A stretch of DNA of 44,188 nt from Acidocella aromatica. GTDB lineage: Bacteria > Pseudomonadota > Alphaproteobacteria > Acetobacterales > Acetobacteraceae. Shown in pieces: positions 32 to 15,028 of this stretch. The translations under genes were made by a program, and so were the position numbers. The DNA is taken from NCBI RefSeq assembly GCF_014201825.1, contig NZ_JACHFJ010000015.1, positions 1-44,188 on the forward strand, given 5' to 3'. Below the pieces are notes generated by a model that was not told the origin of the DNA, did not search any database, and worked only from the letters and a program-made list of their open reading frames with translations. Each line of letters begins with the position of its first letter. Position 1 is the first letter of the stretch.

Positions 32-92
32 CGGTCTATCCCCCAGGAACAGACTCTACACAAAAACGGTCACATTCCAGGGGAGCACGTCA
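1..92 (-). mobile_element. Left end of an IS3-family insertion sequence (partial)
   Basis: Read on the minus strand, this stretch starts at base 92 with TGACGTGCTCCCCTGG, an IS3/IS407-type terminus. It then runs through a short leader to an ATG at 31-29 that opens MKGSRFSEEQI, the usual start of IS3-family OrfA. The element continues off the window. The same 92 bases recur inverted at 44095-44186 without a mismatch. IS identity rests on recognising the OrfA start and terminus; the subgroup is a recollection, not a search result. Confidence 0.8.
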
Positions 93-394: not shown

Positions 395-780
395 CGCTCA
401 TCCTCCGCAAGACAGGTCGGCGGCGCGCTGGGCTTGCGCGCGCCTGCAAGCTCTCACAATTAATGCGTGCTTGATGTTTACCTGTCCTCGGGAGAATACA
501 ACACAATCGAAACAATACAAACAACAAAACCCGCAGCACTATACGGGCAACCTTAGCGAGGATTTCGGCTATATCGACATACCGGTCTTGCAGAATGCGG
601 AACCGAGACGATTGATGGTATTTGTCCTTCTCGCGCTATCGGGACTCTCCGCCTGTTGGATAGACCACCTCGAACGGCGGCGCACCGTAACGCTCGGCGT
701 GTTCGCCGGTGCTGTGGCATGCACGCTGCCTGCGACTCTTGCCCCCTCGACCATGTGAGACGCGAGTTCAATCATGTCAG
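395..780. other. Intergenic stretch without a convincing gene
   Basis: This gap lies between the truncated membrane gene, which is transcribed leftwards, and the end of the glycosyltransferase. A plus-strand open frame to 758 contains a hydrophobic run (VFVLLALSGLSACW) and could be the relic of a membrane protein. It has no clear ribosome site, and no family is recognised. No terminator or repeat was seen. Confidence 0.4.
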
Positions 781-2256: not shown

Positions 2257-3090
2257 TTAGGGCCATTCTGATGGGGTTACATACATCTCGGCGGGCCAGC
2301 GATCGCGGATCGCGCAGGTTTTTCGCGCCATTAAGAATAGACAGTCACCACGAAAGTCTGTTGGAAATTCTTGGCGATTCAGCATTTCAACAATGTCAGG
2401 CATCGGCGCTTCAAAGACATCGTGACTGGCCACATGCTCAACCTCGAACCCCGCGGCTTTAACCAGGGCCACTAGGGCGTGCACATCATATTCAAAATTA
2501 TGCCTATATGGAGAACGGTTGCGGTAGTACTGCATGTGAAAATGCGGCCGCCATCCATTCAACATTTTGTTGACATTGCGCGCCGAGCAACAATTGGGCG
2601 TGGTTAGCAGCAGTTGCCCACCAAGCGCGCAGATTCTGTTAATCTCACTCATCATAAACATAGGATCGACATCGAGATGTTCGATAACCTCGCAGCACAG
2701 AACGAAATCGAGGCTAGCATCCGGAAAGGGGAAGATATCGTTTTCAACATTAATGCTCAAAGTCAGGTTTTCAGCCCGATGCCCCGCCACGTCGATGGTT
2801 CTACGATAGATCTTCTCTTCTACCCGCTCGCTGAACGCTGTGCCTGCGACGAAACCATAGCCAAACACCTCGCGCAGCGCGACTTGAAAGAATGCCGTAG
2901 CACCAATCTCGAGTGCTTTTTTGTTGCCTTTGGCGGCGGGGATGAGTTCCAGCGTCCGGGCAAAGCGGGCCCGATGCGTTAGATAGTAGTTTTGGTTAAA
3001 CTCGGAGCTACCGGTAGCATTTTGCAAGACCTTGATATAACGATCCAGCAATCCTAGCGCGGCCTCAATCAATGTATTTTGATCCGGCAT
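2257..3090 (-). CDS. Class I SAM-dependent methyltransferase
   Basis: This 277-residue protein has a Methyltransf_11-type core. KALEIGATAFFQVAL around residue 60 stands where the glycine-rich SAM loop should be, although that loop is degenerate (EIGAT rather than DxGxGxG). It is followed by FPFPDASLDFVLCCEVIEHLDVDP around 121-142 and LLLTTPNCCSARN around 160. The EVIEH motif is typical of enzymes in O-antigen and glycan clusters. It precedes a glycosyltransferase with no intergenic gap. The ATG at 3090 has GGAGA about eight bases upstream. It may methylate a sugar or lipid-linked glycan; this is inferred from context only. Confidence 0.8.
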   Translation of the reverse strand: MPDQNTLIEAALGLLDRYIKVLQNATGSSEFNQNYYLTHRARFARTLELIPAAKGNKKALEIGATAFFQVALREVFGYGFVAGTAFSERVEEKIYRRTIDVAGHRAENLTLSINVENDIFPFPDASLDFVLCCEVIEHLDVDPMFMMSEINRICALGGQLLLTTPNCCSARNVNKMLNGWRPHFHMQYYRNRSPYRHNFEYDVHALVALVKAAGFEVEHVASHDVFEAPMPDIVEMLNRQEFPTDFRGDCLFLMARKTCAIRDRWPAEMYVTPSEWP

Positions 3091-3221
3091 GACTATTCTC
3101 CGTGTCTGCGATCGAACGCCATGTGTCAGGGCTCAGAGGCGAAAACATCCTGCCCCATGAATCGTGGGCCCCGCATTGCGCGAGAGCTTTTTGAAAGAGC
3201 CCCTTAATACCCTCCACTGGT

Positions 3222-5249
3222 TTAACCTTTTTTAATTGACAATAAGACAGACAGCTCTCGTTTGTCCCCATTGTAAATAATTCTATTTGGAACAAATGTT
3301 TGATTCGCCGTCAAGGTAACAATCGTATCCGCCGGTATATAAAGGACCTGCATCGTTGCTTGTCCGACAGTATAAACGACCTGACTCGATGGAGTAGTAA
3401 CCGTAATTTGTACAGGGACAGAAAGGGGCCGCCCTTTCCCCGTTATTGTCAGTTCTACTGGTGTTCCATGGGTAACAATACGAACCTGCCGACCCATCCA
3501 GTTCTGCTGCGCGGATGAAGGCCAATAATCACCCTCCAGATAGTAATAATTAAGCGCTGATGGCAGCGGAACCTTCACGACATCGACCCCATGGTCCATG
3601 TGCTGCAGCCAGCCCTGCGCCGCAATTGCCGCGACCAACTGGGGCTGTGTGCCCGGGCCGATCAGAATATCATCGACATGATGCGTTTCACAAAAAGCGG
3701 CAAGATCATTGCCGAAGTCGGGCCCAGGCACCCCCGTAAGAAACTCACTCAAAATTGGAAAGGCCTGTTCCGAATACGGAGCGAAGCCGGTATAACCGCC
3801 CGATTGGCTAAATTGCATGCCCTCGTCCAGCTGCCAAGCCATCCCCTCCCCTTCGTCCGCAAAGGGAAGAATAATTACATTTGCTTTCGTGCCGAGCGCT
3901 TGTTTCGTATTTTGCGGCGTAAAAAACGGCTGTTCTGGCCAGCGGGTCCAGGTATGCATACGTGCATTGGGCACAATAAACAGGCATGCAAGCCCGGCGA
4001 GTGCAAACCGCCGGGACGGCCCACGCCCAACGCTCGGCGTCGCCAAGTATAGCCCCGCGACAATCGCCGAAATAAGCGACACGTACATCGTGAAACGTGT
4101 TGGTAGCGCCGAGCGAATCAAAGGAAGTTTTTCACCAAGCCGCCAAGGCAACGGCATTTGAGTTTGCACTCCAGCAACATGTAGCCAGGGCCCTAAACTC
4201 AATACGGCGAGTACAATTACTGTAATCAACAAGGCTTTAACATAAGGAAGAGTAATATGAGCGCGAAAATAAAGCATCATGAGGAAAATCAGAGGCAAAC
4301 CTAAGTAGGCTCCTTGTTCCGCTGTGTTGCCAGTGAATTGACTAGCAACAGCAGCAAAAACCGTTCTCCCAAGGTAGGCAACCCCTGTCGGTATCAAGTA
4401 GTTTAGTGGGTCAGCTGAATAAGTTGTTGCAGAGTTGATTATTGGTGGAACCTCTGACAAACCTTCTACCAAATAAAATAAAAATGGCACGGCCAATATT
4501 GTCATGACCATGCCTGCAAAAACAATGTCGATTGCCAGACGCCACAAGCCAAGCCGATCGGCCTTTGGGGCACATGCCAGGAAGATGGCCCATGTGATTA
4601 CGCCAAGAAAGACCAATGTCGCCAAAATTTCGCTTGACAGCCCTAGCTGAACCAAAAAAATTACCGCCAGTCCTATCACAAAGCCTGTGCGCCCCATTTG
4701 TCTCCGGATGCGTCTTACGCACAACAAGATCGCAAGAGGTATCAAGAAAGTTAGATCGAGATTAAGATGCCCCTGAAGCTGGCCACTTTCGTAAGAGGAG
4801 AATCCAAATAAGTAGCCTCCAACAAGAGCTGCAGCCCAGTCACGTGTCAGGTATCGCACCAACAGAAAGGCCGTCCACGCGGAGAGAACTGGCGCCATCA
4901 AGCTTAATAGGTTGTAGGACAGGACCGCACCGCCCAGCACCGTGATTGGGAAGCTTAACAGAGCAGCAAACGGCACCGAGGTCCGCCATGTCATGTTATC
5001 CCCATGGGGAAACCAAACATAATTTGAAATAAATGGATTTAGACCATGAGAAATGGCAAAGGGCCACCAGTGGAGGAACCATATGACAGATAGCGGGTCT
5101 CTGCCCACTCCCAAGTACCAGTGCGTCAAGCTCCCCGTTCTGCCAAAAAAAATCAAAGAAAAAATGGCATAGATAAATAAAGGAAACGTAACTATCAGCA
5201 TGTAATGAGCGAGTGTCGAACGCTCTTTGTTTTTGGGAGGGCAAAGCAT
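3222..5249 (-). CDS. Polytopic GT-C-like membrane protein, putative glycosyltransferase
   Basis: About 675 residues from the ATG at 5249; a TTG at 5270 would add seven. There are roughly ten hydrophobic segments over the first 430 residues and a soluble periplasmic-looking C-terminal domain. Before the second membrane segment lies WYLGVGRDPLSVIWFLHWWP, then GLNPFISNYVWFPHGDN, a pattern seen in bacterial GT-C-type proteins that use polyprenyl-phosphate sugars. The acidic loop residue and the HG/NPF block fit that class, but no specific family is certain. It heads the minus-strand glycan cluster, 131 bases upstream of the methyltransferase. Codon and base composition are AT-richer than the core genes, suggesting acquisition. 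Confidence 0.6.
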   Translation of the reverse strand: MLCPPKNKERSTLAHYMLIVTFPLFIYAIFSLIFFGRTGSLTHWYLGVGRDPLSVIWFLHWWPFAISHGLNPFISNYVWFPHGDNMTWRTSVPFAALLSFPITVLGGAVLSYNLLSLMAPVLSAWTAFLLVRYLTRDWAAALVGGYLFGFSSYESGQLQGHLNLDLTFLIPLAILLCVRRIRRQMGRTGFVIGLAVIFLVQLGLSSEILATLVFLGVITWAIFLACAPKADRLGLWRLAIDIVFAGMVMTILAVPFLFYLVEGLSEVPPIINSATTYSADPLNYLIPTGVAYLGRTVFAAVASQFTGNTAEQGAYLGLPLIFLMMLYFRAHITLPYVKALLITVIVLAVLSLGPWLHVAGVQTQMPLPWRLGEKLPLIRSALPTRFTMYVSLISAIVAGLYLATPSVGRGPSRRFALAGLACLFIVPNARMHTWTRWPEQPFFTPQNTKQALGTKANVIILPFADEGEGMAWQLDEGMQFSQSGGYTGFAPYSEQAFPILSEFLTGVPGPDFGNDLAAFCETHHVDDILIGPGTQPQLVAAIAAQGWLQHMDHGVDVVKVPLPSALNYYYLEGDYWPSSAQQNWMGRQVRIVTHGTPVELTITGKGRPLSVPVQITVTTPSSQVVYTVGQATMQVLYIPADTIVTLTANQTFVPNRIIYNGDKRELSVLLSIKKG

Positions 5250-5695
5250 GAACACAACATTCCCACTCAAAATTCAGTTTGATTGATTAACGTACTTCGA
5301 GTGCGTAAACTTTCGCACAACAAGTTCAAATATGAAGTAAATTAAATATTTTTTATATCTCAGTGGCTTAGTCAAGAGATTCGGGACTCGTTCTACCATA
5401 AAAAAATAAGTCCCGAGCCCAGTTCATTTGTTTCTAAATTGCATCTTATGAGATGCACAATATCGTTAGATCAACAACGAAAAAATTCACCCTTAATGTC
5501 TCGCTGTGTTGCACCAAGCTATTGAAGTGTAGTGCCCAGTTGCCGTTTCTGCTCTTCTTTGGAATCTTCAAAGTTGTAAACAATGATCGAAAGAAGCTCC
5601 CCTGACAAAGCTACTCGTATTGTCGCAAACTTCTTTTCGTTTGAGCGGAACTGTTCAGTGTGGCATTATCCAGACCCCACTTATTCAGTACGATA
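5250..5695. other. AT-rich intergenic region between glycan cluster and integrase relic
   Basis: No gene, tRNA or CRISPR-like repeat was seen. The base composition is strikingly AT-rich in 5280-5480 (runs such as AAATATTTTTTATA), unlike the surrounding core DNA. The promoter of the glycan cluster probably lies here on the minus strand, but no single -35/-10 pair stands out. It looks like remnant DNA of an older island. Confidence 0.4.
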
Positions 5696-6180
5696 TCAGA
5701 CAACGCCCCGCTTCAGTTTCTCCGCCTCGCGCAGCACCGCCACTGCTTGCACGCTCAGCTGCACGCGGTGCAGAGTGTTCATCTTGCTGCATGCCGCCGG
5801 AATCGCCCACATCGCGTTCTCCAGATCAAACTCGCTCCACGTCGCCCCCTGCCTTTACCGGAACGGCGGGCGCTCAACACCACAAAGCGCACTGCCTAGT
5901 GCGGACACGCTGCCGCTCTCTGCCACCGGCTTGGCGCCAAAATGCGGGAAGACATAGGCTCGCATGTTTGGCGTTCCATCACCCGGCGCGTTACGTCTCT
6001 ATGTATAACGTGGCCACGGCCTCGAAACAGCGGCCATCGGCCACCTGCTGCGCTGCCGGCCTTGCCGATTTACAGCCATAGGTTAGTACCATCGCCGTTC
6101 ATGCCGGGTTCCCCGGTGCGCAACAGCTTCTTCACCTGCCCCTCGGTCAGTTTTTCTACACTCTTTGCCTCGGCCTAAAG
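5696..6180 (-). pseudogene. Decayed P4-type tyrosine integrase
   Basis: Read on the minus strand in several frames, this stretch keeps recognisable integrase blocks in the right order. First comes VEKLTEGQVKKLL, then GEPGMNGDGTNLWL-stop-IGKAGSA (arm-binding DUF4102 domain). FEAVATLYIET-stop-RAG-stop-WNAKHA follows, then AYVFPHFGAKPVAE, then LSARRSGKGR (box I arginine), and after a one-base frameshift GATWSEFDLENAMWAIPA and VAVLREAEKLKRG. Compare FDAVAKLYIEAHRAGWKNEKHA in the intact integrase at 6571. In-frame stops, a frameshift, internal deletions and loss of the HxxR/Tyr part make it inactive. It points to an earlier integration beside the same tRNA. Confidence 0.85.
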
Positions 6181-6329
6181 CTCTGCCTAACCTACGATTT
6201 TCTCACGTTGATTATTGGGAGTTAGGCGCACAGTGGTGCCAATACGAGCCCGGCGAAAGGGGAATTATTGACAGAATAATGTAGCTTTTTGGGATGTGGC
6301 TCTAGGCTGCCCAGCGAGCTACGCAGGCC

Positions 6330-6345
6330 CGTGGCGGAGGAGATG
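6330..6345. repeat. attL: 16-bp copy of the tRNA-Ser 3' end
   Basis: CGTGGCGGAGGAGATG here is identical to 13771-13786. Bases immediately outside differ (C against G to the left, T against G to the right), so the exact identity is 16 bp. It duplicates the tRNA-Ser acceptor end, including the CCA complement, as expected of the site left by tyrosine-recombinase integration into a tRNA gene. Confidence 0.88.
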
Positions 6346-6523
6346 TCCGCCTAACATGTATCCACAGCCGTTTATGGACATCGACAAAAACTAGTATATA
6401 TGACTGTTTTTGCTTTAAATCCGTCCGCCTAAATCCTCTTGCGTATGCAACAATGTTGATTTAGGGTGTATCCACCAAAGAGATTCACCCCGCGCCGGAC
6501 ACGCAAAAATGAGCATTTGCACC

Positions 6524-6555
6524 TGTACCCCTGCTAAAGTTGCTAAACTTGCTAA
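6524..6555 (+). repeat. Triple TGCTAA block, left inverted copy (possible integrase arm sites)
   Basis: TGTACCCC is followed by TGCTAA at 6532, 6541 and 6550, a strict 9-bp period. The same 32-bp arrangement occurs inverted at 13507-13538, with the TGTACCCC flank again on the outward side. It sits just upstream of the integrase start and about 180 bp inside attL. Symmetric multi-site blocks near both ends fit arm-type sites of an integrase with an N-terminal arm-binding domain. They could instead be regulator or replication iterons. Confidence 0.7.
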
Positions 6556-6570
6556 TCGGCGGGCTGCCTA

Positions 6571-7809
6571 ATGGCTAAAGGGCCGAGCAAGCGCCTGACC
6601 GCCTTGGCTATCAACGCCCTGGTGAAGGTCGGAAACTACCCGGACGGCGATAACCTTTATCTTCGTGTCCGGCATGACGGGTCCAAATCCTGGGCGTTCC
6701 GGTACAAGATGGCCAACAAGCCGCACTGGATGAGCCTTGGCCCGCTGCGCGATGTAACGCTGGCCGAGGCACGCGAGGCCGCCCGAAAACTCAGAAACGA
6801 TCTGCGCGAAGGTATCTCCCCGCTCGACCAGCGCCGTGAACGCCAAGCCCTGGCCATGAATGCCGAGGGCCGGACCTTCGATGCCGTGGCGAAGCTCTAT
6901 ATCGAGGCTCACCGGGCAGGCTGGAAGAATGAAAAGCACGCGGCGCAATGGACCAACACCCTAAAAACCTACGCCAGCCCGGTCATCGGCAGCATGTCGG
7001 TCGGCAGCATCGGCCTGGACGAGGTGCTGCGTATCCTGCGCCCAATTTGGAAGGAGAAGCCGGAGACCGCCTCCCGGCTGCGTGGCCGCGTAGAAGCCGT
7101 GCTCGATTATGCCGGGGTGCACGGCTGGCGCACCGGGGACAATCCGGCACGCTGGACCGGCTACCTTGACCAAGTATTGCCCGCCAGGGCGAAGGTGCGC
7201 GCCGTTGAACACCATGCCGCCCTGCCCTGGGCCAATCTACCAGAGGCGTGGGGGAAGCTGGTCGCCAGCGGTAGCACCAGCGCGCTATGCTTGCGGCTCC
7301 TGATTCTGACCGCCACCCGGTCCGGTGAGGCGCGCGGGGCCCGATGGAACGAGCTTGATCTGGCGGCCAAGACATGGACCGTCCCCGCCTCGCGCATGAA
7401 AGCAAAGCAAGAGCATCGCGTGCCACTGAGTAACGCCGCCGTGGCAATCTTGGAGACCATGCGCCCCCTACAGAACAAGCCTGATGGGCTCGTGTTCCCT
7501 GGCGGTAAACCCGGCAAGCCGTTATCGGACGTGGCCCTAAGCAAGGCCCTGGCCACCGTGGCTGAGGGGTTTACCGTTCACGGTATGCGCTCCACGTTCC
7601 GCGATTGGTGCGCCGAGAGCACGAACTTCCCGCGCGAGGTGGCCGAGGCCGCACTGGCCCACACGAACAAGAACAAGGTGGAAGCCGCCTATGCCCGCAC
7701 CGATCACTTCGAGCAGCGGCGCAAGCTGATGGATGCATGGGCGCGGCACTGCACCAGCCCGGCTGTTAAGCCAGCCGGGAACGTGACGACGATCCGCGCC
7801 ACCGCGTGA
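6571..7809 (+). CDS. int: P4-type tyrosine recombinase (integrase)
   Basis: This 412-residue integrase is expected to recombine the element with the tRNA-Ser attachment site. Residues 1-90 form the DUF4102 arm-binding domain (YPDGDNLYLRVRHDGSKSWAFRY). Residues 100-200 form the SAM-like core-binding domain (FDAVAKLYIEAHRAGW). The catalytic domain carries R250 in TATRSGEARGARW, H337 and R340 in VHGMRSTFRDWC, H364 in ALAH and nucleophile Y374 in EAAYARTD. All catalytic residues are present and the length is normal, so it is probably active. It is encoded at the attL end and reads into the element. The triple-motif block lies 16 bp before the start and may let Int repress its own gene. Confidence 0.95.
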   Translation: MAKGPSKRLTALAINALVKVGNYPDGDNLYLRVRHDGSKSWAFRYKMANKPHWMSLGPLRDVTLAEAREAARKLRNDLREGISPLDQRRERQALAMNAEGRTFDAVAKLYIEAHRAGWKNEKHAAQWTNTLKTYASPVIGSMSVGSIGLDEVLRILRPIWKEKPETASRLRGRVEAVLDYAGVHGWRTGDNPARWTGYLDQVLPARAKVRAVEHHAALPWANLPEAWGKLVASGSTSALCLRLLILTATRSGEARGARWNELDLAAKTWTVPASRMKAKQEHRVPLSNAAVAILETMRPLQNKPDGLVFPGGKPGKPLSDVALSKALATVAEGFTVHGMRSTFRDWCAESTNFPREVAEAALAHTNKNKVEAAYARTDHFEQRRKLMDAWARHCTSPAVKPAGNVTTIRATA

Positions 7810-7878
7810 AACAAGCGGGCGCGGGAGGTCATCACCCTCACCGCGCCCTGATGATCCAGACAAAAGGACTGCAACCAA

Positions 7879-8556
7879 ATGACCGAGATCAAGCCCACGA
7901 ATAGCACGCCTAATCCGACAGCGCCAACCGATGAGGCGCTCATTAGGCGGGACCTGTATTGGGAGGATTTTATAAAATCGCAGCGGGCTGAAATTAAAGA
8001 GCGATTTACGCATTTGGTGGTTTCTCTGGACCAAGCAGCGCAAGAACGCATCCGCACTAGCTGCGACCTGCCGCCCATGCCGCCCTGGTGGTGGGAACGG
8101 GTGGAGATGCACCTTGAAAATTACCGGGTTTCAAAGCTGCCTAAATTCTCTCCACAGGTAATCGCTGCTGCAAAACGCTTGAGGTTCGAACTAAATCCCT
8201 ACTGTTCCGAAATTAGCCATCCAGCATTGGTCGATGAGTTAGACACCTTCTTAGAAGCTGCCGAATTTTCTGAAAAAATGGATAGGCCGAAACAACCGAA
8301 GCGTCCAACAAATCACGAGGACCCCGCAGTCATCGCCTTCTTAGGTTCGCTTTGGAAATACGCCATGAAGAGAAATCCAGGCGCAACCACGGAAGGGCCG
8401 TTTGCTCGTTTCTTGATTGCAACACTTAACGAGGTCAGCATTCCAATGCAGGGCCGGACAATCAGAAAGCATGTCGAAACGCTTTTGCAGCCGCCTTGGT
8501 ACACGAAGGATGGCGAGTGGGCGTTGTTTCCACCACCCCCGCACGAAACCCCCTAA
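7879..8556 (+). CDS. Unknown 225-residue protein of the element
   Basis: No family is recognised. The N-terminal 20 residues are Thr/Pro/Asn-rich and probably disordered. The middle is helical with a conspicuous PPMPPWWWERVEMHLENY block around 73-90. The C-terminal third (GPFARFLIATLNEVSIPMQGRTIRKHVETLLQPPW) resembles a compact helical DNA-binding-like unit but is not assigned. AAAGGA lies about nine bases before the ATG. It stands alone between the integrase and the AlpA-like gene, with less GC-rich codon use than the replication genes. It is a candidate for cargo or element control. Confidence 0.7.
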   Translation: MTEIKPTNSTPNPTAPTDEALIRRDLYWEDFIKSQRAEIKERFTHLVVSLDQAAQERIRTSCDLPPMPPWWWERVEMHLENYRVSKLPKFSPQVIAAAKRLRFELNPYCSEISHPALVDELDTFLEAAEFSEKMDRPKQPKRPTNHEDPAVIAFLGSLWKYAMKRNPGATTEGPFARFLIATLNEVSIPMQGRTIRKHVETLLQPPWYTKDGEWALFPPPPHETP

Positions 8557-8631
8557 AATTCATAGTTTTGTGCAGATTATGCAGGCATCCATTGGTGTCC
8601 ATAATCAGGCTCCAAGTCAACGGAGCCAAAA

Positions 8632-8823
8632 ATGTCTAATGCTATGAAGTTACTTTTCCGCCCCGCCGAGGTCCAAGCTGCGCTTGGCATCGGCCATTCC
8701 ACCTTTTGGAGCCTCGTGAAGTCCGGGGCACTGGAATCTCGCAAGATCGGACGCGCAACCGTGGTTCCGGCTGATAGCCTGAATCAGTTTATCGCAAGCC
8801 TTCCGAAGGCCAACGCCGCTTAA
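8632..8823 (+). CDS. AlpA/excisionase-like helix-turn-helix regulator
   Basis: This 63-residue protein has the MerR-like winged helix of HTH_17/AlpA proteins. FRPAEVQAALGIGHSTFWSLVKSGALESRKIGR forms the helix-turn-helix, and ATVVPADSLNQFIASL the wing and last helix. Such proteins activate integrase or act as recombination directionality factors in P4-like elements. GGAG stands eight bases before the ATG at 8632; a second in-frame ATG is four codons on. It is followed by a GC hairpin at 8829-8849 and the replication genes. It could be the Xis of this element; that role is inferred. Confidence 0.8.
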   Translation: MSNAMKLLFRPAEVQAALGIGHSTFWSLVKSGALESRKIGRATVVPADSLNQFIASLPKANAA

Positions 8824-8942
8824 AAACCAAACCCCGCGCTTGTGGCACGGGGCTGGGAAGCACGTAACGGGTTTCTCGGCTGACACCAGAAACCTAGTTT
8901 CTCCCAGCTCAAAGTACAAGCGCAATCTTGAAAGATTGCAAC

Positions 8943-9137
8943 ATGCATAAGCCCAAAAACTCCACCGCCACCCGCACCTTGCGCCGCGCCGCCGCGCATC
9001 TCACCAGCCGCAGCGAGTGGCTGCGCCGCCGCCGGGAGCCTGATCCGCGTTGCCGCGCGGTTCAACTGGCTGACGCCGCCGAATGCGAGCGCCTAGCAGC
9101 CACGTTGCTGGAGATGGTTGAAGGGGGCACGAAATGA
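8943..9137 (+). CDS. Small basic protein of the replication operon
   Basis: This 64-residue, arginine-rich protein (RTLRRAAAHLTSRSEWLRRRREPDPR) has a C-terminal amphipathic helix (ECERLAATLLEMVEGG). No family is recognised. The ATG at 8943 is preferred to a TTG at 8928. Its stop overlaps the Prim-Pol start (ATGA at 9134-9137), which supports it being a real, translationally coupled gene. The charge suggests nucleic-acid binding, but that is inference. Confidence 0.6.
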   Translation: MHKPKNSTATRTLRRAAAHLTSRSEWLRRRREPDPRCRAVQLADAAECERLAATLLEMVEGGTK

Positions 9138-9898
9138 CACCCCTACAGCACGCTCTTGAATGCGCCGCCCGTGGCTGGGCAGTTTACCCGGTGGCCCAAG
9201 ATAAAACGCCCCGCACGCCGAACGGCCACAAGGCCGCCAGCACCGATCCAGAGCGCATCCGCGCCATGCACGTCCAATTTGGCTTCGTGCTGGTCGGCAT
9301 CCGCACCGGGGAAACAAGCAACCTGGCAGTGCTCGACATCGACCGCCAGCACAATGGCCTTGAGTGGTGGCGCGACAATCGCCACCGCCTGCCCGCAACC
9401 CGCGCGCACCGCACGCGCAGCGGCGGGTTACACTTGTATTTCATCCACAAGCCGGGCCTACGGTGCAGTACAGCTCGCATTGCTCCTGGCATCGACGTGC
9501 GGGCCGAGGGAGGCTCAATTATCTACTGGCCCAGCGCTAGGCTAGAGGTGCTCTCTGACGCCCCTATAGCCGAGTGGCCGGAATGGCTCACGCCTGCCCC
9601 CAAACCCGCCGTAGCACCTTCCTGGCAGCCTCTGCACGTCACCCACGGGGACAAGGCGCGCAACTACGCCACCGCCGCCCTCCACAACGCTGTGCAGCGC
9701 GTTGCAGGCACCACAACCGGCAGTCGGAACGCGGCCTTAAACGCCGAGACCTTCAGCTTGGCGCGTTTCGTTCAATCTGGCTCGCTCTCACCCACTGAGA
9801 TTGCCGGGGCGATGGCTCACGCTGGCATTGCTGCCGGGCTGGAAGCCGCCGAGGTGCAGGCGACGATTGCCAGCGCACTGGGGAGTGCTGCCCGATGA
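9134..9898 (+). CDS. Bifunctional DNA primase/polymerase (Prim-Pol)
   Basis: This 254-residue protein has the archaeo-eukaryotic primase-type Prim-Pol domain in residues 1-155. LDID at 67-70 supplies the metal-binding acids. SGGLHLYF at 96-103 and GIDVRAEGGSIIYWPS at 119-134 complete the active site. The domain makes primers and extends them at plasmid, phage or satellite origins. The C-terminal 90 residues are helical and may contact the helicase-like partner. It overlaps the genes on both sides by four bases (ATGA), so it forms a coupled replication unit with the DUF3987 protein. Confidence 0.9.
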   Translation: MTPLQHALECAARGWAVYPVAQDKTPRTPNGHKAASTDPERIRAMHVQFGFVLVGIRTGETSNLAVLDIDRQHNGLEWWRDNRHRLPATRAHRTRSGGLHLYFIHKPGLRCSTARIAPGIDVRAEGGSIIYWPSARLEVLSDAPIAEWPEWLTPAPKPAVAPSWQPLHVTHGDKARNYATAALHNAVQRVAGTTTGSRNAALNAETFSLARFVQSGSLSPTEIAGAMAHAGIAAGLEAAEVQATIASALGSAAR

Positions 9899-11409
9899 GC
9901 GACACCGGCAAGATTCTCAAATTCGACCCCGCCACCATCGCCGCCAACGCCGTGGCCGCCGCATCGGCCCCGCCGGACGCCAAGCGCCCGCTGTACCGCG
10001 ACATTCCACCGGCTGCTGAATATCCTATCGAAGCCCTGGGCGGGCTGCGCGACGTGGCCGACGCCATCCACATGAAAACCCAAGCACCCTGGGCGATCTG
10101 TGCTCAATCGGTTCTTGCCGCCGCCGCGCTGGTCATCGCGCCGCATCGCGATGTTGAGCTGCTGAATGGCCGCAGCGCGTTGACGGTGTTGTGCCTGAGC
10201 ATCGCGGAATCTGGCGAGCGCAAATCCAGCGTGGATAACTTGGCTCTCGGCCCTGTTTTTACGAAGGAGGAACAACTGCGCGCCGATTACGAGGCCGAGG
10301 CGCGATACTTCGCCGCCGATCATCCCGCCTGGAAAGCAGCCATTGAGCAGGCCCGAAAGGCTGCCAAAAATGGCCGAGCCGCAGCGAGAAGCGCCATTGA
10401 GGCGGTTGGCGCGGAACCCAAGCCCCCAGCGCCGCCGATGTTGCTGATGAGTGACGCCACGCCTGAGGGCATTGTGCTCCAGCTTGCCGAATCCAGGCCA
10501 TGGGGTGGCGTGTTCAGTGCCGAGGGCGGTTTAATGCTGGGCGGGCATGGCATGTCTGACGAATCGAAAATCCGCACTGCTGGGCTGCTGAATGTGCTCT
10601 GGGATGGCGGCCCGATCCGCCGCCGCCGCGTGCTGACCGGCAATACCTTCCTGCCTGGCAGGCGGTGCTCGATGCACCTTATGGCGCAGCCTGGCGTTGC
10701 CGAAATCCTCACATGCGACCCCGCTTTTGCCGACATTGGCTTGATGGCGCGCATGTTGATTGTGGCCCCGGCAAGCACTGCGGGGACGCGGAAATATCGC
10801 GAGGCCCCGCGAGAGTGTGCCTTGGTTTTGGCCGACTACAAGGCCCGTCTAGCGCAGTTTCTCGACAGGCCGCATCGGATGCTCGACGGTTCCGGCGGGC
10901 TTGATCCCCAAGTGCTGACACTCACCGACGACGCCAAGGCCATGATGGTGGCCTTCCATGATGAAATCGAGCAGCGGCTTGCACCAGGCGGTGAGTTTTC
11001 CTCTATTCGCGGTTTCGCCAGCAAAATGGCGGAGCACTCTGGGCGGCTGGCTGCGGTGCTCGAGGCATACGGCGATCCCGAAGCGGTAGAGGTGGGGGCC
11101 GAGGCAATGGCAAACGGCATCGCCCTGGTGCAGCACTACGCCGCCGAGATGAAGCGCCTGGCGGACGGCGCAAGCATCGCCCCCGATCTGAAACTGGCCC
11201 GGCATCTCGTGGAGTGGTGGCAGACTGAGGGCAAGCCCAAACGCCATCTTGCCGAAATCTACCAGCGCGGGCCGAACCAGCTACGTGATGCAGCCACAGC
11301 CAAGCGGATCATCGCCATCTTGGAAGAGAGCGGATGGGTGACGCGGCTGCCGCCCAAGACGATGCTGGACGGTGCGCCGCGCCGCGATGCCTGGGAGTTA
11401 GCACCATGA
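9895..11409 (+). CDS. DUF3987 (YfjI-like) helicase-like replication protein
   Basis: This 504-residue protein of the DUF3987 family is usually found beside Prim-Pol genes in prophages and islands. YRDIPPAAEYPIEALGG near residue 40 is the family opening. SIAESGERKSSVDN near 103-116 stands in the Walker-A-like position. GIVLQLAESRPWGGVFSAEGG, around 190-210, and the RMLIVAPAS region, around 284, follow. The C-terminal part (HLAEIYQRGPNQLRDAATAKRIIAIL) looks like a winged helix. The family is thought to act as a DUF927/helicase-like ATPase in replication initiation, but biochemical evidence is thin. Coupled to Prim-Pol by ATGA overlap. Confidence 0.85.
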   Translation: MSDTGKILKFDPATIAANAVAAASAPPDAKRPLYRDIPPAAEYPIEALGGLRDVADAIHMKTQAPWAICAQSVLAAAALVIAPHRDVELLNGRSALTVLCLSIAESGERKSSVDNLALGPVFTKEEQLRADYEAEARYFAADHPAWKAAIEQARKAAKNGRAAARSAIEAVGAEPKPPAPPMLLMSDATPEGIVLQLAESRPWGGVFSAEGGLMLGGHGMSDESKIRTAGLLNVLWDGGPIRRRRVLTGNTFLPGRRCSMHLMAQPGVAEILTCDPAFADIGLMARMLIVAPASTAGTRKYREAPRECALVLADYKARLAQFLDRPHRMLDGSGGLDPQVLTLTDDAKAMMVAFHDEIEQRLAPGGEFSSIRGFASKMAEHSGRLAAVLEAYGDPEAVEVGAEAMANGIALVQHYAAEMKRLADGASIAPDLKLARHLVEWWQTEGKPKRHLAEIYQRGPNQLRDAATAKRIIAILEESGWVTRLPPKTMLDGAPRRDAWELAP

Positions 11410-11624
11410 GCGGCTTACTGAAATTCGACCCGTGGCAAGCAATCGGCAAACCGAACCCAAAGCGCGAGGCGGAGGAACGCCGCCTCGATGCTGAGCTTGA
11501 ACGAGCCGAGCGTCACGCGATCATGAACGAGCCGGAACTTCCACCACCTGGCAGCGAAGGCCGGAAGATCATCAACCTTGAACACGAACGTATGGTGCGC
11601 GGCCTGCTGACCATCGCCCGTTAG
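11406..11624 (+). CDS. Small unknown protein after the replication genes
   Basis: This 72-residue protein starts at the ATG overlapping the DUF3987 stop (ATGA). It opens MSGLLKFDPWQAIGKP, then has a charged helix (KREAEERRLDAELERAERHAIMNEP), then LPPPGSEGRKIINLEHERM. No family is recognised. The opening is reminiscent of the DUF3987 protein's own N-terminal LKFDP, which may be a shared short motif. Translational coupling argues it belongs to the replication operon. Confidence 0.65.
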   Translation: MSGLLKFDPWQAIGKPNPKREAEERRLDAELERAERHAIMNEPELPPPGSEGRKIINLEHERMVRGLLTIAR

Positions 11625-11726
11625 TCGGTCCGTGGGGCGCGGCACAATAAACACCGACAGCCCGCAGGCGGTTTTAACCTTTTCGCCGCCGTGGCGGGCA
11701 AATTCATTCACCTGAAAGGACTCCCT

Positions 11727-12170
11727 ATGTCTGAAAAAGCAGGGAAAAAGCAGGAGACCCGGTTTAAGCCGGGACAATCTGGCAACCCAGCGGGCAAGCC
11801 AAAAGGCACCCGCAACGCCGCCTTGATGGCCCTAGAGCAGATAGGTCAGGCCGACGCCGAGGGCATCCTGCGCGCCGTCATCACCGCCGCTAAAACCGGC
11901 GACATGCAGGCCGCGAAGATCATCATGGATCGTCTCTGGCCAGTGCGGCGGGGCGTGCCGGTGATGATCGACTTGCCCAAAATCAAAACCGCATCGGACG
12001 TCATCGAGGCCACGGCGCAAATCATTGAAGCTACCGCACGGGGCGAGATCACCACCGACGAAGCCGCCGCCCTTGCCGGGCTGGTGGAAGGCCAGCGCAA
12101 GGCAATCGAGACCCACGAATTAGAGCAGCGCATCGCGGCGCTGGAGGAAAGGAGCAAGCAAAATGGCTAA
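11727..12170 (+). CDS. DUF5681 domain protein
   Basis: This 147-residue protein carries the DUF5681 signature TRFKPGQSGNPAGKPKGTRN at residues 12-31, then an alanine-rich helical region (QADAEGILRAVITAAKTGDMQAAKIIMDRLWP). It ends in a coiled coil (HELEQRIAALEER). The ATG at 11727 is chosen over an upstream start because AAAGGA precedes it. The family is common in phages, often near terminase genes, and in islands. Its function is not established. Here no terminase is present, which makes it interesting as a possible link to helper packaging. Its end overlaps the next gene by eight bases. Confidence 0.8.
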   Translation: MSEKAGKKQETRFKPGQSGNPAGKPKGTRNAALMALEQIGQADAEGILRAVITAAKTGDMQAAKIIMDRLWPVRRGVPVMIDLPKIKTASDVIEATAQIIEATARGEITTDEAAALAGLVEGQRKAIETHELEQRIAALEERSKQNG

Positions 12171-12375
12171 AATCAAAGACCGGCTGACCAGGCTGGAAGC
12201 CAAGACCCCTGCGCCGGAAAAGGCCATTCAAATCTGCCGCGTCATCGTTGAACGTGGCGAGAACGGAGAACTGCGCGAAGTTGGGCGGATGTACCGCCAA
12301 TCGGATGGCAGCCTAGGCCCGATGATCCCAACTCCACGCAATGGAGAAAAGACAGAGCGTGACAAAACCCTTTGA
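12163..12375 (+). CDS. Small unknown protein coupled to the DUF5681 gene
   Basis: This 70-residue protein reads MAKIKDRLTRLEAKTPAPEK, then a short beta-like stretch (AIQICRVIVERGENGELREVGRMYRQSDGS). The start overlaps the upstream gene by eight bases, with GGAG in the upstream gene's last codons serving as ribosome site. No family is recognised. The N-terminal helix and small beta unit are compatible with an oligomerising accessory protein. It is followed by a 70-bp gap containing a palindrome. Confidence 0.6.
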   Translation: MAKIKDRLTRLEAKTPAPEKAIQICRVIVERGENGELREVGRMYRQSDGSLGPMIPTPRNGEKTERDKTL

Positions 12376-12405
12376 GTAGAAAACGAAGTAGAAATGGCCG
12401 GGCAA

Positions 12406-12429
12406 AATGTGGTAATATACTACCACATT
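12406..12429. promoter_or_regulatory. Perfect palindrome, likely operator
   Basis: AATGTGGTA, six bases ATATAC, then TACCACATT form an exact inverted repeat with 9-bp arms. It lies between 12375 and the ATG at 12446, immediately ahead of the ribosome site AGGGGAA. There is no T-run, so a terminator is unlikely. Spacing and symmetry fit a dimeric repressor site controlling the last two genes of the element. Confidence 0.6.
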
Positions 12430-12445
12430 GTTAGGGGAACCTCAT

Positions 12446-12667
12446 ATGAATCTGAAAGCCGAAGTTGCGCGACGCCTAGCTGAAATGCGCGAGCGCGAGC
12501 GCTATGTTGAGAGCCTCGCCTCGCTGGGCATTGCCGCCGATAGCGCCATCAATCTTGCCGGGTTGAAGGCGTTGCACACCCAGGCAACCGGCCAAGGTGC
12601 AGCGGCAGCCAAAGCATCAAGCAGCGTCTCCAGGCACTACGGCGTGCCCGCGCCAAGGAAGCTCTGA
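12446..12667 (+). CDS. Small helical protein following the palindrome
   Basis: This 73-residue protein opens MNLKAEVARRLAEMRERERYVESLASLGIAADSAINLAGL. A charged helix is followed by a second short helix, and the Ala/Ser-rich tail ends RHYGVPAPRKL. The ATG at 12446 is preceded by AGGGGAAC; a TTG at 12428 inside the palindrome is unlikely. Its stop overlaps the next gene's start (TGATG). No family is recognised. Its placement directly after an operator-like palindrome suggests separate regulation from the replication operon. Confidence 0.6.
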   Translation: MNLKAEVARRLAEMRERERYVESLASLGIAADSAINLAGLKALHTQATGQGAAAAKASSSVSRHYGVPAPRKL

Positions 12668-13362
12668 TGACCCCGGAGCGCGAGAAACTAGCCGCCGCCA
12701 TCGCGGCCTTGAAGCAGGCTGAGCAGGAAAAAACCGCACTGGCCTCCCTCTCCTCAAATTCATGGGAGCCAATTTCCTCCGCCGAGCGCCGAGTTGAAGC
12801 TGCCGAAAAAGCTCTCTCGGAGGCGCAGGAATTGGCTGTGGCCGACATGGTGGCCGCGAGGCTTGGCCGGGAGGTTCCGAAGCGTTCCACCCGCCAGGAG
12901 TTGCAAGCCGAACTGGACACCGCCCGCGCCGATCTGGACGCTGCCCGCGCTGCACGGGGCGAGTTGAAGCGCCAAGCTCAGGATGCCGAGAAGGCTCTGG
13001 GCTGGTGCCAGAGCAGCTTGAACAGCGCCCTATCGGCAGTAATCGAGGCTTCTCCCGAAGTCTCTAAGCTGCTGGGCGAGATCAAGGCCCTGGAGGCCGA
13101 ACTCATTCAGCGATACGAAGCCCTGGCCGCCATCGGAATCAGTGGCCCCTATTCTCGCGCGAAGCGTGAAGCGCAGCTCCAGCCGCCCGCCCGAACTGTT
13201 CCCGGCCTTCCCGATTGGCATTTGCTATTCCACGGCCCGCGCGGCGACTTGGCGGCAAGTTGGGCGGTGGCGGTGGATAAGTTGCGGACCGATGCAAACG
13301 CGCCACTACCGGGCAGCACTACCGGGGAAGGCCAGCGCCCGAAGCGGAAGCTGTTCGGGTAG
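12667..13362 (+). CDS. Coiled-coil protein, end of the element operon
   Basis: In this 231-residue protein, residues 1-165 are almost entirely heptad-like (EKLAAAIAALKQAEQEK, RRVEAAEKALSEAQELA, RQELQAELDTARADLDAARAA). The C-terminal 60 residues are Pro/Gly/Trp-containing and end RPKRKLFG. It has no membrane segment or signal peptide. The start overlaps the upstream stop by one base. No family is recognised; scaffold or accessory roles are possible. It is followed by two hairpin terminators. Confidence 0.65.
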   Translation: MTPEREKLAAAIAALKQAEQEKTALASLSSNSWEPISSAERRVEAAEKALSEAQELAVADMVAARLGREVPKRSTRQELQAELDTARADLDAARAARGELKRQAQDAEKALGWCQSSLNSALSAVIEASPEVSKLLGEIKALEAELIQRYEALAAIGISGPYSRAKREAQLQPPARTVPGLPDWHLLFHGPRGDLAASWAVAVDKLRTDANAPLPGSTTGEGQRPKRKLFG

Positions 13363-13457
13363 AAACCGCCTAGCGGGGTTTTTGGTTCCCTCCACCCGCA
13401 GGCGAGCAGGAGGGCGGCGGACTCCACTACGCCGCCCTCCACGCAATTCCAAACCAG

Positions 13458-13483
13458 CCCCGGACATAGCGCCGGGGTTTTTT
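13458..13483 (+). terminator. Rho-independent terminator of the element operon
   Basis: CCCCGG, loop ACATAGCG, CCGGGG, then six T. It lies about 95 bases after the coiled-coil gene. A weaker hairpin with a T-run (AACCGCCTAGCGGGGTTTTT) sits at 13365-13384, directly after the stop codon. Together they close the plus-strand operon. Confidence 0.8.
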
Positions 13484-13506
13484 GTTACCTGGGGGGGTGG
13501 CGCGGT

Positions 13507-13538
13507 TTAGCAACTTTAGCAGGATTAGCAGGGGTACA
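13507..13538 (-). repeat. Triple TGCTAA block, right inverted copy
   Basis: On the minus strand this reads TGTACCCC, then TGCTAA three times at 9-bp intervals (13530-13525, 13521-13516, 13512-13507). The order and flank are those of the left block at 6524-6555. Two of the three spacers differ (TCC and AGT against AGT and ACT). It lies about 230 bp inside attR and beyond the operon terminator, so it is not part of a gene. That favours a recombination or replication site. Confidence 0.7.
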
Positions 13539-13770
13539 CCCTCAAATCTGTAAAATGCGGTCCAGGGACAAAAGGGCTATCTCTCATGCACGCGCGCGTG
13601 AAAAACAAGGAAAAAAGGTCAGTATTACTTACTTATTTATATTGGCATGATACAGCCTGCCATACGCCCTGATCCGCCAACGTGCGGCAACTGAGTGTAT
13701 CCAGATAGGTGTTACCATAAATTTGGGCAGTTTTGATTGTTGCTGTATTTTGCTGCAACACTTCAAAGTG
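13539..13770. other. Non-coding right end of the element
   Basis: No gene was seen. It contains a 12-bp palindrome CACGCGCGCGTG at 13589-13600 and a T/A-rich tract (TTACTTACTTATTTATATT) at 13627-13645. The position between the right triple-motif block and attR makes it a plausible place for an origin or for excision-factor binding, but no iterons beyond the triple block were found. Confidence 0.4.
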
Positions 13771-13786
13771 CGTGGCGGAGGAGATG
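13771..13786. repeat. attR: 16-bp repeat within the tRNA-Ser 3' end
   Basis: CGTGGCGGAGGAGATG is identical to 6330-6345. It covers the CCA end and acceptor stem of tRNA-Ser, so the tRNA gene stays intact on the right side of the element. Confidence 0.88.
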
Positions 13787-13865
13787 GGATTCGAACCCAC
13801 GATACGCCTTGACAGCGTATAACGGTTTAGCAAACCGCCGCCTTCAGCCTCTCGGCCACCCCTCC
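13773..13865 (-). tRNA. tRNA-Ser (anticodon GCU)
   Basis: The minus strand gives acceptor GGAGGGG paired with CTCCTCC (one G-T pair), discriminator G and encoded CCA. The D-arm is TGGCCGAGAGGCTGAAGGC. The anticodon stem-loop CGGTTTGCTAAACCG carries GCT at 13831-13829. A long variable arm TACGCTGTCAAGGCGTA and the T-loop GGGTTCGAATCCC complete the gene. The long variable arm and the anticodon identify it as serine, AGC/AGU codons. It is the integration target of the element to its left. Confidence 0.97.
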
Positions 13866-14124
13866 GTACACGGCCAGGGCAAGCATAAATTGCTACGCCC
13901 TGCGTGCCACCTTCATAATCGGCAGCAGCGGGAAGGTAAAGCCTCCCTGGCGCGCAATCCGCCACAAACAACCAAGTATCTGAATTTATTTGTTTTACTT
14001 TCCGCTGCATGGATTGCTTTGCTGCATTGCAAAATTTTTCTTGCACTGCAACATAAATTGGCATATACAAATAAATACAGGGTGAGTTTCTCCCCTGTTT
14101 CTTGGACGTTTCCTCCCTAAACTT

Positions 14125-14154
14125 GGCGGCGCTGTATTAGCGCCGCCTTTTTTT
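14125..14154 (+). terminator. Strong hairpin with T-run
   Basis: GGCGGCGCT, loop GTATT, AGCGCCGCC, then seven T on the plus strand. The T-run side faces the end of the minus-strand amidohydrolase gene. No plus-strand gene is seen to end here, so the transcript it terminates is unknown. The 260 bases between tRNA-Ser and this hairpin contain no supported gene and should hold the tRNA promoter. Confidence 0.7.
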
Positions 14155-15028
14155 ATTCGGCCGCCGCGCAATAGCCCGGGCCAGCGCCCCCCCATAGGCG
14201 CATGGCATCGGCCATATCCCGCAGAAAACCGCTCAAACGCTCCTGCACCAGGGCAAAGCGTGCGTTCCGGGCGAATTGCCGCTCATGCATGTACAGCCCG
14301 CGCGCTACCTCGAGCTGCACCACCTGCACGCCCTCGCGCGGGCGGCCGTAATGGCGGGTGATGAAGCCCCCGGCATAGGGGTCGTTGCGGCGCACGGAAA
14401 ATCCGTATCCGGTGAGCAAGGACTCGATATACGCGGTCCAAGCCGGGGTACAGCTTGTGCCATGGCCGTCGCCCAGCACAATATCGGGCCGGTTTGCGTT
14501 CCGTCCCGGCGGGGTCGGCATGGAATGGCAATCCAGCACCAAACAATGTCCGAATTCAGCCTGGGTTTCCTCAATCAGCCCGGCCAGCGCCTCGTGGAAG
14601 GGCTGCCAGCACGTGCGCACGCGCGCCTCGGCGTCGGCGAAGCTCAGCTTGCGGGCGTAAATCGGCTCGCCTGTGCCAACGATCCGCGCGATCGTCCCCA
14701 ACCCCGCCGCCACGCGCGAGCTGTGGCGGTTCACGTAGTCGGGCAGTTCGTCCGCGAACATGCTGGGGTCCAGCTCCCAGGGCTCGCGGTTGGCATCGCA
14801 CCAGGCGCGCGGGAATTCCGCCGCCAGCAGCGGCACCCCCAGCGCGGGGGCTCCGCCGAACAGCTCCTCCACGTAACTATCCTCGGAACGGCGGATGGCC
14901 TGTGCGTCGAGCCGCGCCTGGGCAAGGAATTCCACGCCGTAATACCGCCCCGAATGCGGCGAGGTGAGCACCAGAGCGGCACTCTGGCATTGGGGACGCA
15001 GCAGGGTGAAGGGCGATAAATCTCTCAT
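14153..15028 (-). CDS. N-formylglutamate amidohydrolase family protein
   Basis: This 291-residue protein hydrolyses, in the characterised family, N-formylglutamate to glutamate and formate (HutG type). SPHSGRYY near residue 24, LPDYVNRHSSR near 94, LVLDCHSMP near 162, RPDIVLGDGHGTS near 178 and GGFITRHYGRP near 220 are the conserved zinc-hydrolase blocks. No hut genes are nearby, so a histidine-degradation role is not supported by context. It lies 52 bp after the Wzx-like gene on the same strand and may be its co-transcribed tail. Related N-acyl amino acids are possible substrates. Confidence 0.85.
   Translation of the reverse strand: MRDLSPFTLLRPQCQSAALVLTSPHSGRYYGVEFLAQARLDAQAIRRSEDSYVEELFGGAPALGVPLLAAEFPRAWCDANREPWELDPSMFADELPDYVNRHSSRVAAGLGTIARIVGTGEPIYARKLSFADAEARVRTCWQPFHEALAGLIEETQAEFGHCLVLDCHSMPTPPGRNANRPDIVLGDGHGTSCTPAWTAYIESLLTGYGFSVRRNDPYAGGFITRHYGRPREGVQVVQLEVARGLYMHERQFARNARFALVQERLSGFLRDMADAMRLWGGAGPGYCAAAE

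What the first reader, a model, noticed from the sequence alone, without database searches (positions are those of the whole stretch)
6330..13786. Compact tRNA-Ser element with Prim-Pol and DUF3987 but no structural or transfer genes
It is complete by several tests: att repeats, intact catalytic integrase, AlpA-like regulator, coupled replication genes and a terminator. Absence of capsid, tail, relaxase and secretion genes points to a satellite or IME that depends on a helper. Five of its genes have no recognisable function, and the DUF5681 gene stands without a terminase. This is the best candidate in the window for an undescribed system.
Basis: partly seen in the sequence, partly recalled or inferred. 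Interest (0 to 1): 0.72.

Follow-up and report, generated by a model that had tools for sequence, protein, structure and literature searches.

The report
PICMI-like phage satellite in Acidocella
A small DNA parasite sits in a bacterial serine-tRNA gene; it carries genes to cut itself out and copy itself but none recognised for building a virus particle, so it probably travels in the shells of other viruses, like a recently described group of marine satellites.

Summary
The feature is real: a 7,457-bp integrated element (6330-13786) in tRNA-Ser(GCT), with a 16-bp exact att repeat and genes int, g2, alpA, g4, Prim-Pol, DUF3987, g7, DUF5681, g9-g11. A relative lacks it at the same site. It belongs to a family in Acetobacteraceae: 14 att-bounded elements (4.8-12.2 kb; 8 at tRNA-Ser), all with an integrase, 10 with DUF3987. 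Among 94 accessory proteins none matches a capsid, portal, large-terminase or relaxase family; one has tail-type matches. Core genes look under purifying selection. In 10 of 12 elements the left end matches the element's own right end best, as expected of integrase arm sites.

The closest known kind is the PICMI satellite of Vibrionaceae: integrase, AlpA and DUF3987 in the same order. Differences: tRNA instead of fis, an extra Prim-Pol, and a DUF5681 gene. In at least 35 of 80 viral contigs a large terminase follows DUF5681, so I read it as a small-terminase-like packaging adaptor. This is inferred: most of those contigs share only its N-terminus, and the fold search was negative. Best reading: a helper-dependent satellite, a new variant of a known kind (0.65). 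Packaging, helper and excision are not shown.

The parts
6330..6345 (+). attL core CGTGGCGGAGGAGATG
   Evidence: exact 16-bp copy of the tRNA 3' end
6357..6364 (+). TGTATCCA motif, left copy 1; candidate AlpA/Xis or core-proximal site
   Evidence: repeated at both ends, with similar copies seen in L111 and L028; function inferred
6466..6474 (+). GTGTATCCA motif, left copy 2
   Evidence: function inferred
6524..6561 (+). three GCTAA-type repeats just before int; candidate integrase arm sites
   Evidence: blastn match to the right end, E 1e-8; control
6571..7809 (+). tyrosine integrase (412 aa)
   Evidence: Pfam PF13356, PF22022, PF00589; pN/pS 0.18-0.22
7879..8556 (+). g2, 225 aa, in the iolg/icg position of PICMIs; no homologue found
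   Evidence: no family; no phmmer hit at E 1 among 469 proteins; single-sequence model poor, pLDDT 44
8632..8823 (+). AlpA/excisionase-type HTH protein (63 aa)
   Evidence: PF12728, 34.3 bits against a cut-off of 27; phrog_66 excisionase/regulator 1.7e-4
8943..9137 (+). g4, 64 aa, between alpA and primase (up1 position)
   Evidence: homologues in L028, L041, L094
9134..9898 (+). Prim-Pol primase-polymerase (254 aa)
   Evidence: PF09250 1.7e-29
9895..11409 (+). DUF3987 helicase/primase-family replication protein (504 aa)
   Evidence: PF13148 2.5e-92; phrog_2373 DNA helicase
11406..11624 (+). g7, 72 aa, conserved in Acidocella elements L111 and L028
   Evidence: phmmer 1e-30 to L111 and 5e-30 to L028
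11727..12170 (+). DUF5681 protein (147 aa), inferred small-terminase-like packaging adaptor
   Evidence: PF18932; followed by TerL in at least 35 of 80 viral contigs; no TerL recognised beside it in 20 Acetobacteraceae loci (by eye)
12163..12375 (+). g9, 70 aa, RLxxLE-type companion of DUF5681
   Evidence: phmmer 7.6e-4 to L041 and L094 proteins; such a gene follows DUF5681 in 17 of 20 other loci
12408..12427 (+). TGTGGTA-N6-TACCACA inverted repeat before g10-g11; candidate operator
   Evidence: perfect arms; at up to 3 mismatches 28 of 100 shuffles have a match, so weak
12446..12667 (+). g10, 73 aa, no homologue found
12667..13362 (+). g11, 231 aa, coiled-coil-like accessory protein
   Evidence: only weak, below cut-off matches to coiled-coil families
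13456..13479 (+). terminator-like hairpin with T tail
   Evidence: hairpins not enriched over shuffles
13501..13538 (-). right-end GCTAA-type repeats; candidate integrase arm sites
13589..13643 (+). conserved non-coding right-end block; candidate ori or packaging site
   Evidence: 6 places in 5 of 38 Acidocella genomes, each beside a tRNA or att core
13695..13703 (+). GTGTATCCA motif, right copy
13771..13786 (+). attR core
13773..13865 (-). tRNA-Ser(GCT), target gene left intact
   Evidence: ARAGORN

Best explanation
An integrated, helper-dependent phage satellite of the PICMI/PICI kind. Integrase recombines the 16-bp core in tRNA-Ser, using arm repeats near both ends. AlpA acts as excision factor or inducer when a helper phage infects or is induced. 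Prim-Pol and DUF3987 replicate the circle or concatemer. The DUF5681 protein, perhaps with g9, marks element DNA for the helper's terminase, and the DNA leaves in helper particles. Shown here: integration, end anatomy, gene content, conservation and the family. Inferred: excision, induction, packaging and the role of DUF5681.
For: Exact att repeat and an unoccupied site in G322. PICMI gene set and order: int, a gene, alpA, a gene, primase (PMC10803314). 14 att-bounded elements of 4.8-12.2 kb, all with an integrase, 10 with DUF3987, at least 8 with an AlpA-type gene. No capsid, portal, TerL or relaxase family among their 94 accessory proteins. Core pN/pS 0.18-0.36. Own right end is the best match of the left end in 10 of 12 elements, tied in one more. 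DUF5681: of 58 downstream ORFs of 300 aa or more in 80 viral contigs at least 35 match a large terminase family. Some Gram-negative PICIs carry a terS homologue (PMC6092414 passages).
Against: No helper phage, virion reads or excision data. The DUF5681 model (pLDDT 78.6) found no match at E 0.001 or better in PDB or BFVD; its only sequence link to a terminase small subunit is phrog_4102 at E 0.005. Most of the terminase-linked viral contigs match only the N-terminal part of the window protein. A fragment of a phage record with a full-length match (MT836812.1) has tail-like ORFs and no TerL seen beside it (by eye). In the one paper found, a DUF5681 protein was detected in a phage's structural proteome (PMC8954984 passages), which ties it to particles but is not typical of a small terminase (recalled). 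The resident prophage has TerL and the genome no second DUF5681. The exact right-end pattern was in no viral contig. The PICMI paper calls the fis site a hallmark and reports complete PICMIs only in Vibrio.
Confidence: 0.65

Rival explanations
1. A self-replicating integrative island spread without a dedicated helper: it excises and replicates, and moves by generalised transduction, a gene transfer agent or natural transformation. DUF5681 and g9 would then serve replication or regulation.
For: Replication and recombination modules explain most conserved genes. DUF5681 is missing from 7 of the 10 att-bounded elements found through DUF3987 or the tRNA site. No helper link was found.
Against: AlpA plus primase without structural genes is the published satellite signature (PMC10803314). 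DUF5681 is followed by TerL in many phage-like contigs.
Confidence: 0.2
2. An integrative mobilisable element carrying only an oriT, mobilised by a conjugative element's relaxase.
For: tRNA integration and compact size fit; relaxase-less IMEs are known (recalled).
Against: No relaxase or transfer family in the 94 accessory proteins of 14 elements; AlpA and Prim-Pol/DUF3987 are satellite-like. oriT was not searched for.
Confidence: 0.1
3. A decayed prophage that lost its structural genes.
For: Integrase, AlpA and DUF5681 have phage homologues.
Against: L111 (tRNA-Ser CGA) and L028 (tRNA-Ser TGA) share the core gene order, and L111 also DUF5681, with no structural genes found; genes intact and pN/pS low.
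Confidence: 0.03

Closest known systems
[quoted passage not shown] PICMI115 of Vibrio chagasii, PMC10803314)
   Same: int, a gene after int, alpA (PF12728 is in the model), a gene, then primase DUF3987 (PF13148 is in the model); small (6.1 kb for PICMI115, average 6.7 kb); flanking direct repeat of similar length (17 bp there, 16 bp here); no capsid genes; variable 3' genes.
   Different: Inserted in a tRNA 3' end, not beside fis; Acetobacteraceae, not Vibrionaceae; separate Prim-Pol gene; DUF5681-g9 cassette, whereas the paper reports no identifiable packaging genes such as terS; induction by phage untested.
Gram-negative PICI (EcCICFT073 type, PMC6092414)
   Same: int, alpA, primase/replication gene, no structural genes; some members carry a terS homologue.
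   Different: Primase is Prim-Pol plus DUF3987; no helper known; no cos or pac site identified.
cf-PICI
   Same: Satellite-size integrated element with integrase and AlpA (recalled).
   Different: cf-PICIs make their own capsids (stated in PMC10803314); no capsid, portal or TerL found here. L109 has a TerL-like gene but was not examined as a cf-PICI.
P4-type satellites
   Same: AlpA/Vis-type regulator, integrase at tRNA, primase-helicase (recalled).
   Different: No P4 family appeared in the scans of the window proteins; replication genes belong to other families.

Membership tests
PICMI | integrase PF00589 | tested here: met
   58.6 bits, cut-off 27.1
PICMI | AlpA PF12728 or PF05930 | tested here: met
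   PF12728 34.3 bits, cut-off 27
PICMI | primase with DUF3987 PF13148 (or DUF5906) | tested here: met
   310 bits
PICMI | integration beside fis | tested here: not met
   att in tRNA-Ser(GCT); therefore not filed as a PICMI
PICMI | found in Vibrionaceae | tested here: not met
PICMI | activation and packaging by a helper phage | not testable with these tools
   needs culture and phage
Gram-negative PICI | int, alpA, pri-rep, no structural genes | tested here: met
   pri-rep by role, not by family
Gram-negative PICI | phage-dependent induction and specific packaging | not testable with these tools
   needs culture and phage
Gram-negative PICI | TerS homologue or cos/pac (some members) | tested here: inconclusive
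   DUF5681 often precedes TerL in phage contigs but no TerS fold match
IME | relaxase | tested here: not met
   none among the window proteins or the accessory proteins of 14 elements; oriT not searched
cf-PICI | own capsid, portal and packaging genes | tested here: not met
P4-like satellite | P4-type genes (psu, sid, alpha; names recalled) | tested here: not met
   no family so named in the Pfam or PHROGs results of the window proteins

The most novel reading that the evidence does not exclude
The DUF5681-g9 cassette is a packaging-hijack module: a small terminase plus a stand-alone RLxxLE protein that mimics, or bridges to, the N-terminus of the helper's large terminase. It is shared by elements with different replication modules. 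Hint: in viral contigs L126 and L128 the gene directly after DUF5681 begins with the same RLxxLE segment (L128 has a Walker motif, L126 resembles a large terminase only by eye), as does a likely terminase 1.7 kb further on in L129. Counter-example: L291.
Probability: 0.15. Interest if true: 0.75.

Novelty: new variant of a known kind. Interest (0 to 1): 0.5.

Why it matters
The PICMI authors found complete PICMIs only in Vibrio, at fis. A family with the same core in tRNA genes of Acetobacteraceae, with low pN/pS and, in several members, a gene that in phages often precedes the large terminase, would extend this satellite plan to another bacterial class. It would offer a tractable set of elements for asking how minimal satellites choose their packaging machine, and it gives a candidate function to DUF5681, which only one paper of the searched library mentions.

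Tried and rejected
Fold search of DUF5681 for a TerS fold: nothing at E 0.001 or better. Single-sequence model of g2: unusable. Defence-system scan of 10 of the 11 proteins (not g9): only a weak alpA hit and coiled-coil hits for g11. Right-end block as a phage-derived packaging site: no exact pattern match in viral contigs, so its role stays open between ori and packaging. DNA similarity in plasmids: best 4% coverage. DUF3987 in the phage collection: one record, 23% identity. DUF5681 in the phage collection: two records; Yersinia phage P778 is a short match with no terminase annotated within 4 kb, and MT836812.1 (8.7-kb unverified fragment, 42% over 90%) shows tail-like ORFs and no TerL by eye. 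'RLxxLE at the start of TerL is general': rejected, 3 of 58 downstream ORFs (background 7 of 471 windows); two of the three follow extended-type DUF5681, and another extended-type contig with a terminase-like ORF lacks it. The DUF3987 relatives in viral contigs (28 loci) and the serine recombinase genes near several relatives were not followed up.

Limits: gene maps come from my own codon-bias caller, which can miss or mis-start small genes. Elements L089, L096, L099 and L102 were found through DUF5681, so its frequency in the 14 is biased. Of 21 genomes with DUF3987, the window's own and three weak ones (G091, G035, G243) were not fetched. Eight of the 22 tRNAs found near candidate elements gave no att repeat. 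Of the 147 element proteins, 53 that I took as core (integrase, replication, AlpA, DUF5681, recombinase, transposase) were seen only in capped lists: 25 of 36 Pfam families (six of the 11 hidden ones appear, five were never seen) and 25 of 84 PHROGs. Synonymous differences are near saturation (pS up to 0.77), so pN/pS is rough.
Full report
OBSERVATION. The window is contig G000:C15 of a 2.88-Mb genome. The element runs from 6330 to 13786. The 16-bp core is exact at both ends; at up to 2 mismatches there are 4 hits in the window against a shuffle mean of 0.02. The right copy lies at the 3' end of tRNA-Ser(GCT). G322 has the same tRNA and right flank (87% over 2.4 kb) without the element. The same comparison shows about 5.9 kb of further DNA left of attL (409-6329) that G322 lacks.

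GENES. Pfam: integrase with arm-binding, central and catalytic domains; HTH_17 (AlpA-type); Prim-Pol; DUF3987; DUF5681. Six other genes have no family above a cut-off: g2, g4, g7 and g11, g10, g9 (PADLOC and NCBIfam not run for g9). No capsid, portal, large terminase or relaxase was found among the window proteins; g11 has one weak, coiled-coil-like hit to a tape-measure family (E 0.009).

FAMILY. DUF3987 relatives occur in 21 of 299 Acetobacteraceae genomes, 17 of 102 genera. I fetched loci of 17 of the 20 other genomes, element L111, found through the tRNA site search, and 20 loci round DUF5681 relatives, which occur in 46 of 299 genomes. Over these 38 loci and the window a script looked at tRNAs and exact repeats of their 3' ends: 22 tRNAs, of which 14 (window included) have a repeat of 14 nt or more bounding 4.8-12.2 kb. 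Eight of the 14 are tRNA-Ser; the others are Tyr, Glu, Lys, Thr and Arg (two). No shuffle control was run on these repeats; by simple counting a 14-nt match within the range searched is expected about 0.003 times per tRNA. All 14 have an integrase and 10 have DUF3987; an AlpA-type gene was recognised in at least 8. The four found through DUF5681 lack DUF3987; three of them have other primase or ATPase-type genes. L111 (tRNA-Ser CGA, 7,113 bp) and L028 (tRNA-Ser TGA, 8,018 bp) have int, a unique gene, alpA, Prim-Pol, DUF3987 and g7 in the window's order; L111 also has DUF5681. Core genes show pN/pS 0.18-0.36; DUF5681 is faster, 0.50-0.58 (synonymous sites near saturation).

I scanned 147 proteins of the 14 elements (capped lists, 25 of 36 and 25 of 84 families shown) and then 94 accessory proteins alone, with complete listings (PHROGs; Pfam). 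In the complete listings no capsid, portal, large-terminase, relaxase or secretion family appears. One protein of L041 (694 aa) matches tail and injection-type families (phrog_2276 1e-12, phrog_873 9e-19). Separately, L109 in G309 is a second element type at the same tRNA, with int next to the tRNA and a TerL-like gene (below Pfam's cut-off, above it). Two of the DUF5681 loci that were not att-bounded (L091, L097) have ORFs downstream that look phage-structural by eye; they were not scanned.

ENDS. The distance from att to the start of int is 241, 243 and 242 bp in the window, L111 and L028. In most elements looked at, short repeats just before int recur near the other end; their sequence differs between elements. 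Control: with the att core removed, the left end of each of 12 elements was compared with all 12 right ends. Its own right end scores best alone in 10, ties with two others in one (L030) and is second in one (L089); own scores are 19-50 bits, the others average 18. L038 and L099 were left out because their integrase lies differently. This is what integrase arm sites should look like. A non-coding block at 13589-13643 is conserved in other elements and found in 6 places in 5 of 38 Acidocella genomes, each beside a tRNA or an att core; its exact pattern has no match in viral contigs.

DUF5681. In 20 Acetobacteraceae loci no neighbour was recognised by eye as a large terminase (not scanned by HMM), and a small protein starting with an RLxxLE-type motif follows directly in 17 of 20, as g9 does in the window. 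In 80 viral contigs with DUF5681 (the best 80 of 263), 58 have an ORF of 300 aa or more starting within 1.2 kb downstream. Of these 58 plus one upstream ORF (L124, no match), 35 match Terminase_6N and 26 Terminase_3; the overlap is not known. So DUF5681 often sits where a small terminase gene would. But most of these contigs match only the first 60-80 residues of the window protein. Among the six best full-length relatives (L124-L129) I see a terminase-like ORF by eye or motif in L124, L126, L128 and L129, none in L127, and a contig end in L125. The predicted model (helices 31-56, 60-70, 89-104, 110-146; pLDDT 78.6) has no match at E 0.001 or better in PDB or BFVD and no named TerS among those listed. 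In L126 and L128 the ORF directly after DUF5681 starts with the RLxxLE motif, and in L129 a likely terminase 1.7 kb downstream does so; L291, with a terminase-like ORF directly after, does not, and its DUF5681 C-terminus also differs. Over all 58 ORFs the motif is rare: 3 of 58, background 7 of 471.

HELPER. G000 has one Terminase_6N match, in C8, within genes that look like a contractile-tail prophage; the tail assignments are recalled resemblances, not scanned. The genome's only DUF5681 match is the one in the window. The prophage is a possible helper and nothing more.

KNOWN SYSTEMS. PICMIs (PMC10803314; I read sections 10 and 12 and passages) are defined by int, AlpA and DUF3987-type primase beside fis. 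The order is int-iolg-alpA-up1-prim, alpA triggers excision, and the paper reports no identifiable packaging genes (a passage names terS, sid, ppi). The authors found 135 PICMI-like elements in complete genomes, 67 of them in Vibrionaceae, and complete PICMIs only in Vibrio. The element here meets the three gene criteria and the order but not the fis site or the host family, so it works like a PICMI without being filed as one. PMC6092414 (passages) reports terS homologues in some Gram-negative PICIs. Library searches: DUF5681 (one paper on a Salmonella phage, where passages show a DUF5681 protein in the structural proteome); phage satellite + Acetobacteraceae (none); phage satellite + DUF3987 (the PICMI paper only); phage-inducible chromosomal island + Alphaproteobacteria + satellite (two papers on other subjects by title and abstract listing); satellite + small terminase + Prim-Pol + tRNA + integrase (none); tRNA + satellite + DUF3987 + integrase (none). 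None of these describes this family as far as the listings show. The library is open-access only.

VERDICT. A real, intact, recurrent element; most likely a helper-dependent satellite; a new variant of a known kind. The packaging role of DUF5681 and g9 is the open and interesting part.

Noticed in passing
window 409-6329: About 5.9 kb absent from the G322 site, with a weak glycosyltransferase match, a methyltransferase and a 682-aa membrane-like protein, left of attL: a second island or older cargo at the same hotspot.
   Followed up: partly
L109 (G309:C48) 1-14500: Tandem array at tRNA-Ser(GCT): right end of a window-type element followed by a different element with int next to the tRNA, a Prim-Pol relative, a TerL-like gene and, by eye, a resolvase-like gene.
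   Followed up: partly
L041 (G153:C18), 694-aa ORF: A satellite-like element carrying one tail or injection-type protein near DUF5681; a near-identical DUF5681 with neighbouring genes occurs elsewhere in the same genome (L094).
   Followed up: no
L363 (MT836812.1) 1-8660: Unverified phage fragment from human faeces with a full-length DUF5681 relative (42%) and tail-like ORFs (tape-measure-like 825 aa, by eye), no TerL seen beside it.
   Followed up: partly
L110 (G309:C33) 4860-6561: Right-end block and an RLxxLE gene beside tRNA-Glu with no other element genes recognised: a possible remnant.
   Followed up: no
L091 (G205:C47) and L097 (G168:C52), downstream of DUF5681: ORFs that look phage-structural by eye follow the DUF5681-RLxxLE cassette; not scanned.
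   Followed up: no
window 12408-12427: Inverted repeat TGTGGTA-N6-TACCACA before g10-g11, a possible operator for a separate accessory operon.
   Followed up: partly
L032 (G134:C33): Relative element whose DUF3987 match contains one TGA, with two Ala-rich ORFs (451 and 480 aa) without a Pfam or PHROGs match between int and DUF3987.
   Followed up: no
L033, L038, L039, L042, L044, L125: Small serine recombinase genes recur in or near these elements.
   Followed up: no
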